DNA of 64,000 bases from Vigna angularis. Its lineage: Eukaryota; Streptophyta; Magnoliopsida; Fabales; Fabaceae. The stretch lies in NCBI RefSeq assembly GCF_016808095.1, contig NC_068980.1, forward strand, positions 2,914,001 to 2,978,000, written 5' to 3'. This document shows, piece by piece, positions 24,490 through 27,997 of the stretch; positions within the stretch are counted from its first letter, which is position 1; each line of letters begins with the position of its first letter. Position numbers and translations under genes: made by a program. The notes beneath the pieces are model-generated. The model was not told the origin of the DNA. It searched no databases and saw nothing but the letters and a program-made list of their open reading frames with translations.

Positions 24490-24763
24490 ATGGCCTACAC
24501 GCAAGCTTTCTTGCAGTTCAATGCCCTAACTTCTCCTCTTAGAGTTAGGCCACAGTGGGGAGTGGGGACCACCAAAGCAAAGCACATTGTGTGCAAGGCA
24601 GAGAAGGATGATGTGGAAGAGGGTGCAGCCACCACCCTTAGTCATGTCTCTCGCCGATTGGCCCTCGGCACTGCCCTCATCGGCGGTGCCGCTGCTGCTG
24701 GTGGCTCCAAGGTCTCACCTGCTGATGCTGCTGATGCACAACTCTCTTTCCAGGAACCTGGTG
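24490..24763 (+). other. PsbP-type chloroplast/thylakoid-lumen presequence exon (gene A exon 1)
   Basis: Encodes residues 1-91. Residues 1-37 look like a stromal transit peptide ([13 protein letters not shown] start, rich in Thr/Arg/Lys, ending VCKA, the kind of site where PsbP precursors are cut). Residues 38-53 are an acidic linker. SRRLALG at 54-60 is a twin-arginine motif, then a hydrophobic Ala/Leu/Ile/Gly core, then KVSPADAAD with an A-x-A lumen cleavage site near 80-81. The order and wording match legume PsbP precursors (known: VSRRLAL...[10 protein letters not shown]). The mature PsbP domain does not follow. Donor GTATTT at 24764; GTGGTA at 24761 would also keep the frame. Confidence 0.85.
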
Positions 24764-27700
24764 GTATTTATTTTACCCTTCATCACTTTTTTAAACATTT
24801 CCTTTTTTGCATGTTTCTTTTCACGTGTCACTTGTTCAAATTCTTCGTCTGTCAAAAACAAGTTCTCCATTTTGAATCAAACATGAATTTTTCACTGTAT
24901 CACTTCTGCATTAAACACAATAAGAGTCTCGTAATCACTCAACATGACATGTAACGACTTTACTCTGTAGCAATTACCACATTACCAGCAATAATTTCCG
25001 AGGAATATCCTGCATCTGTTATCGATGCTCTTTCTCTCAATCGAAACAGTTTTCCCAAGGGCTTCATTTTCGGGACAGCATCCGCGGCCTACCAGGTATC
25101 CTCATAATATCTCTTATTCTTTTATGAGAAAACTTTGAGATTTCAACTTCATACGATTTTGTTACGTTGTTTATATGTATACCCATGTATAGTACGAAGG
25201 AGCGGCGTCTGAAGGTGGAAGAAAACCTAGTATATGGGATGTATTCACTCACAAGTATCCAGGTTCTTTTTTCTACCTTTCTAAATATAAATCCAACTAA
25301 AACAATTACAGATTACTTTTTATAACTTAAAAATGTATCTGTTTCTAAGTTTTTCAAAAATTATATATATGAACTTAATAAAAATTATAGATTATAGTCT
25401 GATTTTATAAACATGTAATGTTGCAGAGAAGATAAGGGATAGAAGTAATGGAGATGTAGCAATTGATGAATACCACCGTTACAAGGTAAAGTCCAATATC
25501 TTAATGATGACAGTCTAGGATGAATGAAGAAACCAATTATTTTTCTTCATCAAATCAATTAATTAAATTTTTGGACGTTGTTTTACATTTATATGACAGG
25601 AAGATATTAAGATAATGAAGGATATGAATCTGGATGCATACAGATTATCCATCTCATGGTCTAGAATAATACCAAGTGAGAAAAAAGTTGATGAACTATT
25701 ATTACTCTTTTTGTTATGATTGTTGTTGGATCTTTCATTGTTAATGATTTCAATCTTAATTTGAAATTATTGATATATAGATGGAAAGGTCGGTGAAAAC
25801 GAGGAGGGTGTAAATCAAGAAGGAATCGCTTATTACAATCGCCTCATTGATCATCTCATAGCCAACGGTGAATGTCCATGTGTTCTTCTCTTGGTTTTTC
25901 ATACATTTTATAATATATTTTTTAAGTGAATGAGATATTGATTTAAATATAAATGTTGCAGGTCTAAAACCATACGTGACACTTTTTCACTGGGATCTTC
26001 CCCAAGCTTTAGAAGAGGAGTATGGAGGTTTTTTATCCCATAATGTTGTGTAAGTTGTACAATTTTTTTTTATATTCAACTTAGTACTATTACAAATATG
26101 TGTATATATATGATTTGTTTTTTTTGAGATAATATAATCTTTTAAGAAAAAAACATAAATTATGATGACAATTTTTTTAAAACAAAGTTACCCCTTATTA
26201 AGAGTTACAATGCATTTTTTTTATTAAAATAAAAATTTAGGTAAAATATTAAAGACCAGTGTTATTGACATTTATGGCTAACCTAATTTTGTTCAAAGAG
26301 ATTCTTAGTAAAATATTACTAGGTTTTGAAATTTTAAAATATGATCTCATAAGGTTTGATATTAAGCTATAGCTAGGGGGATTGTATACTAATTGTGAAT
26401 TTAAAAATATTTCAGGAGTGATTTTCGAGACTACGCAGGAATTTGTTTCAAATACTTGGGAGACAGGGTGAAACATTGGATTACCCTAAATGAACCATGG
26501 TCTTATAGTAATAATGGCTATGCAGTTGGAACCTTTGCACCAGGTCGATGCTCTGAATGGCAAGATTCAACTTGTCTCGGAGGTGATTCAGGAACAGAAC
26601 CATATATAGTTACACATAATTTACTACTTGCTCATGCAGCTGCTGTAGATCTGTACAGGAAAGAGTTCCAGGTTTGTTTAACCTTAATGAGAAACTTTCA
26701 AATCTTTATGGTTTATTTCTATAATGCTACGAGGGTTCAAGGACTCTTATATATATATATAGCTCTTTTACTTAATAACGTTAAAAACACTTGACACAGG
26801 AATATCAAGAAGGAGTGATAGGCATAACACTTATTTCTCGTTGGTTTGAGCCATATTCAGAAACTGAATCAGATAAAGATGCTGCTAAACGTGCACTTGA
26901 CTTCATGTTTGGGTGGTAAGTGCTTAACTCTGCATAAGAATATGCATTCTCAAATGTGATGTTTTGATATGTAACAATGAATATAGGTACATGGAACCAT
27001 TGACATCAGGAAAGTATCCAGAGAGCATGCGTTTTCTAGTTGGTAATCGATTACCAGAGTTCTCAAAAAAAGAATCAAAACTTCTTGCCGAATCATTTGA
27101 TTTTATTGGAATAAACTATTACACCACTCTTTGCGTTGCGGATGAACCCCATGTTGATCCTTCTAAACTTAGTTATACTACAGATCCTCATGTCCGTTAT
27201 TCAAGTGAGGAAGCTTCTATCTTTCAATTATTTAAATTATATTTGTTGAATTTTCTAATACAACACTTTTTGTTTTTTTTTTCATCCGTCAGCTGAACGC
27301 AATGGTATTCTCATAGGTCAACCGGTGTGTATACGATTATGTCGTTCATTTTAATATTATTATTTCATATGGTTTTATGTAGCTTTATATTTATATTTGC
27401 AGACCGCTTCTGATTGGCTATATGTTTGTCCGAAAGGAATCAAAAAGTTGTTGCTCTATACCAAAGAACAGTACAACGATCCTGTGATTTATATAACTGA
27501 AAATGGTAATTATATCAAAAGCAATTTTTATTGTCTTTAAAGAAAATATTTTGAGAAAATTATTCAAAATGTGGAATTTCAATATAAAATTTTCTTTTAA
27601 CGTGTTGATGTATTTTACTTTCAATTTATAGGAAGAGGCAATGACGTCAGTCAAGACAAGGAGACACTTGAGGAATCTCTTATAGATATTTATAGAATCG

Positions 27701-27997
27701 ATTTTTATTATCGTCATCTGTATTATCTACTTTCAGCAATAAGGTAATGATTTATTTTTCACATATTTTAAATTTGTTTCTAACTCTAAATTTAAATATA
27801 TTTTTTTTGACTTTATAAGGGACGGCCATGTAAATGTAAAAGGATATTTTGCGTGGTCACTTTTGGACAATTTTGAATGGAGAGATGGCTATTTAATAGG
27901 ATTTGGACTGAATTATGTGGACAGACAAAATCAGAAGCGATATCCCAAACTTTCAGCAAACTGGTTTAAGAGTTTTCTTCAGAAAAAGTTGAGATAA
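24490..27997 (+). CDS. GH1 beta-glucosidase fused to a PsbP-type presequence (gene A)
   Basis: I read 14 exons: 24490-24763, 24971-25095, 25193-25262, 25437-25495, 25600-25675, 25781-25867, 25962-26049, 26416-26671, 26800-26915, 26987-27204, 27293-27324, 27403-27505, 27632-27743, 27820-27997. They sum to 1794 nt, 597 residues, all phases consistent and no stop. Exon 1 gives a PsbP-like bipartite plastid presequence; exon 2 continues in frame as [14 protein letters not shown] and then the GH1 start ([10 protein letters not shown]...FGTASAAYQ). Acid/base Glu286 is in TLNEPW, nucleophile Glu500 in ITENG, and WSLLDNFEW is present. The former ER-signal start (ATG 24944) runs into TAG at 24968-24970, whose AG is the exon 2 acceptor, so only the fusion is productive. 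Predicted location: thylakoid lumen, otherwise stroma. Substrate unknown. Confidence 0.85.

What the first reader, a model, noticed from the sequence alone, without database searches (positions are those of the whole stretch)
24490..27997. A thylakoid-lumen presequence of PsbP type fused to a GH1 beta-glucosidase
Seen: exon 1 of gene A encodes a bipartite presequence (VCKA stromal site, SRRLALG twin arginine, hydrophobic core, KVSPADAAD) and splices in phase 1 onto a complete GH1 enzyme with no stop, total 597 residues. Known: PsbP precursors have this wording and use the chloroplast Tat route; plastid GH1 enzymes exist in grasses (maize Glu1, oat avenacosidase) but with ordinary stromal transit peptides. 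Inferred: the gene captured the targeting exon of a PsbP gene and sends a beta-glucosidase to the thylakoid lumen, a location I do not know for this family.
Basis: partly seen in the sequence, partly recalled or inferred. Interest (0 to 1): 0.93.

Follow-up and report, generated by a model that had tools for sequence, protein, structure and literature searches.

The report
Photosystem presequence exon fused to beta-glucosidases
In adzuki bean and close relatives, a group of sugar-cleaving enzymes whose relatives are secreted has taken over the address-label exon of a photosystem II gene, so they are probably now sent into the chloroplast, most likely into the thylakoid lumen; no experiment has yet shown this.

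Summary
Exon 1 (24490-24763) encodes a PsbP-type presequence (stromal site, twin arginine, hydrophobic core, AxA) and splices in phase 1 to 13 exons of an intact GH1 beta-glucosidase, 597 residues in all. It is not a one-off: the window holds two more such genes (49926, 60356). The genome search (Vigna angularis) found seven full exon-1 copies, all in one array and each before GH1 exons, one decayed copy, and two PsbP genes. Fused proteins also occur in V. mungo, V. radiata, V. unguiculata and Phaseolus vulgaris; those tested form one clade. The PsbP gene on contig C6 is the likely donor, with the same phase-1 splice donor. In gene A that remnant is broken, and I see no start codon outside exon 1 that could give a whole enzyme. 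Fusion and retargeting are well supported by sequence. Lumen location is likely but untested; the role, perhaps two-component defence, is inference. No RNA or protein data were available.

The parts
24450..24489 (+). 5' leader of gene A, similar to the leader of the PsbP gene on contig C6
   Evidence: local DNA alignment begins at -40 in gene A and -42 in PsbP; shuffles of the 120-base flank that score as high: 2 of 300 for A, 20 of 300 for B, 0 of 300 for C
24490..24763 (+). exon 1 of gene A: bipartite PsbP-type presequence, 91 residues plus one base
24764..24970 (+). intron 1 of gene A, phase 1: 5' end resembles PsbP intron 1, 3' half resembles the leader and signal-peptide start of the unfused GH1 genes
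24944..24970 (+). remnant of the ancestral secretory signal peptide, read MTCNDFTL then TAG; the AG of that TAG is the intron-1 splice acceptor
   Evidence: alignment with the unfused genes at 4865, 13930-14180 and 36370; no ATG in frame between the last stop and the end of exon 2
24971..27997 (+). exons 2-14 of gene A: complete GH1 body; catalytic glutamates are residues 286 (TLNEP) and 500 (ITENG)
49926..53538 (+). gene B, same architecture (exon 1 49926-50196); exon 7 lacks 8 bases relative to gene A, and the frame stays open only if exon 6 runs on to a donor after 51256; P0004, a V. angularis protein from another record, does not show this
50317..50359 (+). signal-peptide remnant in intron 1 of gene B ([15 protein letters not shown]), still in frame with GH1
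60356..64000 (+). gene C, same architecture, 592 residues; runs past the window and ends near window position 64838
60717..60756 (+). signal-peptide remnant in intron 1 of gene C ([13 protein letters not shown]), in frame with GH1
21514..23146 (-). decayed inverted copy of the leader and first half of exon 1 (23146-23056 and 21642-21514), split by about 1.4 kb and without a GH1 body
36370..40546 (+). unfused paralogue for comparison: 13 exons, hydrophobic N-terminus of secretory type in exon 1, no intron in it

Best explanation
A DNA segment holding part of the leader, the first exon and the splice donor of a PsbP gene came to lie just upstream of a secreted-type GH1 beta-glucosidase gene in a common ancestor of Vigna and Phaseolus. 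A splice acceptor arose inside the coding sequence of the old signal peptide, so the secretory start codon and signal core became intron and the PsbP presequence became the N-terminus. The gene then multiplied in tandem. The precursor should be imported into chloroplasts, trimmed at the VCKA site in the stroma, carried folded through the thylakoid Tat translocase by the RR signal, and released into the lumen after cleavage at AxA. There it would be kept apart from glucosides stored elsewhere until chloroplasts break, as polyphenol oxidase is and as plastid beta-glucosidases of grasses and Panax are. Shown here by sequence: the fused reading frame, the donor gene, the acceptor inside the old signal peptide, a single clade, open enzymes in A, C and D. 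Inferred: transcription, import, lumen location, defensive role.
For: Open 597-residue frame with canonical splice sites. Genome search with exon 1: 10 matches, of which 7 full copies without internal stops, 7 of 7 in front of GH1 exons. Of 12 GH1-length proteins found with residues 1-95, 11 are named as Vigna or Phaseolus and the 12th, P0008, is the window's own gene C; a 13th, P0065, is from P. vulgaris. Fused GH1 domains, 11 of 43 rows, form one side of a branch with support 100/99. The PsbP gene on C6 has an exon 1 of 244 bases ending in phase 1 at GAAGCTG|GTATTTCACCC; B has GAAGCTG|GTATTATACCC and C has CCTC|GTATTTATTTTACCC. Intron 1 resembles the leader and signal-peptide start of the unfused genes: shuffles reaching the score, of 500 each against three genes, are 0, 0, 0 for A; 0, 0, 1 for B; 4, 1, 0 for C. 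Synonymous divergence of exon 1 and of GH1 between A and C is alike, 0.293 and 0.314, as expected if they travelled together. RR, core, Lys and [AV]xA are kept in 18 of 18 peptides. In gene A no ATG in frame lies between the last upstream stop and the end of exon 2.
Against: No transcript or protein data. dN/dS of exon 1 between fused paralogues is 0.52-0.60, and 7-11% of bootstraps reach 1 or more, so constraint on exon 1 is not proven by that test; the values against PsbP (0.31-0.60) include the constrained PsbP branch and do not settle it. Public gene models disagree: P0030 starts inside exon 2, P0001 and P0003 join exon 1 but skip middle exons, P0015 reads through intron 1. The signal core is less hydrophobic than that of PsbP (1.31-1.85 against 2.09) and has extra glycines. 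The last ten or so residues of exon 1 have no clear counterpart in PsbP, and the alignments of A and C end before the donor; only that of B runs through it. Leader similarity stops near -43, so promoter capture is not shown. Loss of N-glycosylation sites is largely shared with the nearest unfused group and is not informative. No signal-peptide or localisation predictor was run; signals were judged by eye and by motif.
Confidence: 0.75

Rival explanations
1. The fused precursor enters the chloroplast but the Tat step fails or is partial, so the enzyme works in the stroma, as recalled for maize Glu1.
For: Panax PnGH1 is reported as a chloroplast GH1 enzyme with a transit peptide (passages of PMC10796634); the fused signal core is less hydrophobic than that of PsbP.
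Against: The Tat stretch (residues 51-70) is the best conserved part, narrowly (0.90; other parts 0.68-0.89), and RR and [AV]xA are kept in 18 of 18 peptides. A purely stromal enzyme would not need them.
Confidence: 0.15
2. Exon 1 is mostly bypassed: transcripts start in intron 1 at the old signal-peptide ATG and give a secreted or cytosolic enzyme, perhaps beside the plastid form.
For: B, C and D keep an ATG with a short hydrophobic stretch in frame with GH1.
Against: In A that start reads eight residues and stops, yet the GH1 body is open, with dN/dS 0.37 and 0.39 against C and an unfused paralogue. The remnant core is shorter than the signal peptide of the unfused genes in all four. Exon 1 has no internal stop in 7 of 7 full genomic copies.
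Confidence: 0.07
3. A gene-model illusion: a dead PsbP fragment that merely sits beside a GH1 gene.
For: A decayed exon-1 fragment without GH1 lies nearby, and several public models omit or misjoin exon 1.
Against: 7 of 7 full copies precede GH1 exons; gene models of five species join the two; gene A has no other start that I could see.
Confidence: 0.03

Closest known systems
PsbP (23-kDa oxygen-evolving enhancer 2) precursor
   Same: Presequence from start codon to AxA and the phase and place of the first splice donor; 64% identity to the C6 gene
   Different: No mature PsbP domain; exon 1 is followed by GH1 exons, and its last ten or so residues differ
White clover cyanogenic beta-glucosidase (1CBG) and other legume GH1 enzymes
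   Same: 1CBG is the best solved relative of the body (E 7.5e-210); catalytic motifs in 11 of 11 fused proteins examined, three cysteines shared by 11 fused and 30 unfused
   Different: Unfused legume relatives begin with a hydrophobic N-terminus of secretory type, judged by eye; lima bean linamarase is reported as apoplastic (a title in the reference list of PMC7402084)
Plastid GH1 defence enzymes: maize Glu1, sorghum dhurrinase, oat avenacosidase (recalled), Panax PnGH1 (passages of PMC10796634)
   Same: GH1 enzyme moved to the plastid by an N-terminal sequence; substrate kept elsewhere
   Different: As far as I recall these have a plain transit peptide; here it is a bipartite Tat-type signal taken from a known gene
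Polyphenol oxidase
   Same: Defence-related enzyme with transit peptide plus thylakoid transfer domain and RR, sent to the lumen by Tat (passages of PMC12876524)
   Different: Unrelated copper enzyme
SFR2 (recalled)
   Same: GH1 protein at the chloroplast
   Different: Outer envelope, galactolipid remodelling

Membership tests
GH1 beta-glucosidase | GH1 domain over the whole catalytic body | tested here: met
   PF00232, 512 bits, residues 116-595
GH1 beta-glucosidase | acid/base and nucleophile glutamates | tested here: met
   TLNEP and TENG in 11 of 11 fused proteins examined
GH1 beta-glucosidase | beta-glucosidase activity | not testable with these tools
   needs expressed enzyme
PsbP | mature PsbP domain | tested here: not met
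   no PsbP hit in the protein; the PsbP-domain search of the genome gave 12 matches, the only one on C11 at 25.69 Mb, far from the array at 2.9-3.0 Mb
PsbP | PsbP presequence exon and splice donor | tested here: met
Thylakoid Tat substrate | stromal site, twin arginine, hydrophobic core, c-region Lys, AxA | tested here: met
   motif check by script, 18 of 18 peptides
Thylakoid Tat substrate | RR- and proton-gradient-dependent transport into the lumen | not testable with these tools
   needs import assay
Two-component plastid defence glucosidase | a stored glucoside substrate split on tissue disruption | not testable with these tools
   substrate unknown

The most novel reading that the evidence does not exclude
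A gene family so far seen only in Vigna and Phaseolus makes GH1 beta-glucosidases of the thylakoid lumen, a place I do not know for this family. It arose when a photosystem II targeting exon was captured and a splice acceptor formed inside the old signal peptide, which switched the enzyme from secretion to the lumen and turned the lumen into a store for an activating defence enzyme. In B, C and D the old start may still give a second, non-plastid form.
Probability: 0.6. Interest if true: 0.85.

Novelty: new variant of a known kind. Interest (0 to 1): 0.76.

Why it matters
It is a readable case of how an enzyme changes compartment: donor gene, captured exon, and the remnant of the replaced signal peptide are still visible in one genome. 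If lumen location is confirmed, it adds a glycosidase to a compartment known mostly for photosynthesis-related proteins and gives common crops (cowpea, mung bean, common bean) an unexplained enzyme family whose substrate can be sought. Four distinct paralogues in this genome, with the old signal in different states of decay, make the steps testable.

Tried and rejected
N-glycosylation sites: fewer in 11 fused than in 30 unfused proteins (0.13 against 0.43 per 100 residues), but three of the main losses are shared by the nearest unfused group (0 of 4 there; one further site is 3 of 4 there and 0 of 11 in the fused), so I do not use this.

Shared promoter: alignment to the C6 PsbP gene stops near -43; promoter capture is not claimed.

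The C7 PsbP gene as donor: rejected. Identity is 52-53% against 64%, exon-1 synonymous distance 0.83-1.17 against 0.39-0.61. Its leader scores no better than shuffles (293, 204 and 235 of 300 reach it for A, B, C); its intron start is weaker than that of C6, though not nil (14 and 9 of 300 for A and C, against 2 and 1).

The B intron flank was cut four bases off the true donor (50196), so that result (90 of 300) is void. My first exon list had boundary slips and was corrected.

The tree of exon-1 peptides alone is almost unresolved and neither supports nor contradicts co-inheritance. With 22 to 75 random substitutions, exon 1 keeps an open frame in 0.51 to 0.16 of trials, so an open frame alone is weak evidence.

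Literature: ten searches listed no paper on a lumenal GH1 enzyme or a PsbP-GH1 fusion. I saw listings and the starts of abstracts (several lists were capped, for example 15 of 143), and passages of four papers; no paper was read whole. The library holds open-licence papers only. The bean gene (Phvul.005G151500) corresponds by name to P0069, an unfused relative.

Full report
What is there. Residues 116-595 are a GH1 enzyme, closest among solved structures to white clover cyanogenic beta-glucosidase, with both catalytic glutamates. The first 91 residues have no Pfam match, but a profile of 17 such peptides (A1; two further records with the same exon 1, P0017 and P0018, and the repeats P0001 and P0003 were left out) matches the two full-length PsbP precursors in the PDB at 9.4e-15 and 2.6e-11 over profile positions 1-81; the third and last hit up to E = 10 is a protein named gp32 at E = 2.

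Source. Protein P0001, named as Vigna angularis in a public record, matches gene A at 100% over residues 1-95. The window lies on contig C11 of its genome, which is 27,654,650 bases long, the same length as the contig of that record.

A family, not one gene. Searching the protein collection with residues 1-95 in the length range of GH1 enzymes gave 12 proteins: 11 named as V. angularis, V. mungo, V. radiata, V. unguiculata or P. vulgaris, and P0008, which is gene C. A search by the GH1 part showed P0065 of P. vulgaris, which carries the same exon but was missed by the first search, so that search is not exhaustive. In the length range of PsbP the same 95 residues found 11 proteins: P0001 and P0003 again, seven short open frames that run from exon 1 into intron 1 (P0013-P0019), and two PsbP proteins of Rhododendron. 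The genome search with exon 1 gave 10 matches, a lower bound by the tool's own note: seven full copies within 82 kb of C11, one decayed copy, and the two PsbP genes. 7 of 7 full copies are followed by GH1 exons within 0.7 kb. They are A, B, C, D and a second set of B, C and D some 35 kb further on, 99.7% identical over 30.7 kb, which may be a recent duplication or an assembly fault. A, C and D are open throughout; the second set was not checked. B lacks 8 bases in exon 7 and stays open only with another donor; P0004, from another record of the same species, does not show this.

Where exon 1 came from. The PsbP gene on C6 has a first exon of 244 bases that holds the whole presequence plus the residues AYGEA and ends in phase 1; the mature part follows further on. 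The local alignments to it run from -40 (A), -41 (C) and -25 (B); those of A and C end near the AxA codons, that of B runs through the donor and 12 bases into the intron. The donors GAAGCTG|GTATTTCACCC (PsbP), GAAGCTG|GTATTATACCC (B) and CCTC|GTATTTATTTTACCC (C) correspond. Shuffles that reach the observed score, of 300: leader 2 (A), 20 (B), 0 (C); intron start 2 (A), 1 (C); the B intron value is void (see Tried and rejected). The second PsbP gene, on C7, is more distant. The ten or so residues before the donor in the fused genes (such as DAQLSFQEP) have no clear counterpart in PsbP.

What was replaced. The unfused paralogue read in full has 13 exons and a secretory-type N-terminus in exon 1, [16 protein letters not shown] at 36376. 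In the fused genes the 3' part of intron 1 still resembles the leader and first codons of such genes: [13 protein letters not shown] in [16 protein letters not shown] in B, MACNEFIVLGTVG in D, MTCNDFTL then stop in A. Shuffles that reach the score, of 500 each against three genes: 0, 0, 0 for A; 0, 0, 1 for B; 4, 1, 0 for C; D was compared by eye only. The acceptor lies inside the old signal core, in A at the very codon that now reads TAG. The capture therefore removed the secretory signal by making it intron.

History. With 11 fused and 32 unfused GH1 rows that I chose from the hits (plus the window's gene A), the fused rows are one side of a branch with support 100/99, as in 100% of 200 bootstrap trees; truncated records P0001, P0003, P0007 and P0030 were left out, six unfused rows kept their N-termini because my trimming pattern missed them, and the root is a midpoint for drawing only. 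That secretion is the older state rests on the remnant in intron 1 and on the N-termini of the unfused rows, which I judged by eye. One capture before the Vigna-Phaseolus split is the simplest reading. No other genus was among the GH1-length hits with exon 1, but the search is word-based and missed one known member, so absence elsewhere is not shown.

Is exon 1 still used? Between fused paralogues dN/dS is 0.52-0.60, with 7-11% of bootstraps at 1 or more; against PsbP C6 it is 0.44-0.60, but that comparison includes the constrained PsbP branch. The GH1 bodies give 0.37-0.43. Conservation is highest in the Tat stretch (0.90), closely followed by the first 16 residues (0.89) and the stromal site (0.88). 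In gene A no ATG in frame lies between the last upstream stop and the end of exon 2, so a whole enzyme needs exon 1 or an exon not seen.

Mechanism. By analogy with PsbP (recalled) and polyphenol oxidase (passages of PMC12876524), the precursor would cross the envelope, lose the transit part at VCKA, and pass the thylakoid membrane folded by Tat. Panax PnGH1 shows that a dicot can keep a GH1 enzyme in chloroplasts and use it when they break (passages of PMC10796634). I take the same role as most likely here, at about 0.4; hormone-glucoside release in the plastid is the main alternative. Overall I put the fusion transcript at about 0.95, plastid location at about 0.9, lumen at about 0.75. These are judgements, not computed values.

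Noticed in passing
C11:2959000-3025000 (window 45000 onward, and L014-L018): A segment with genes B, C and D occurs twice, 35 kb apart, 99.7% identical over 30.7 kb; recent duplication or assembly fault.
   Followed up: partly
window 21514-23146, minus strand: Decayed inverted copy of leader and half of exon 1, split by about 1.4 kb that contains a near-copy of 23927-24222.
   Followed up: partly
window 14083-17841: Unfused GH1 pseudogene with stops in signal peptide and body.
   Followed up: no
window 31044-31596 and 54727-55130: GH1 fragments for which the exon-1 search shows no exon 1 nearby.
   Followed up: no
window 50317-50359 and 60717-60756; gene D just beyond the window: Old signal-peptide starts still in frame with GH1, possible second products.
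   Followed up: partly
P0001, P0003, P0015, P0030: Public gene models of these genes skip exons, read through intron 1 or miss exon 1.
   Followed up: partly
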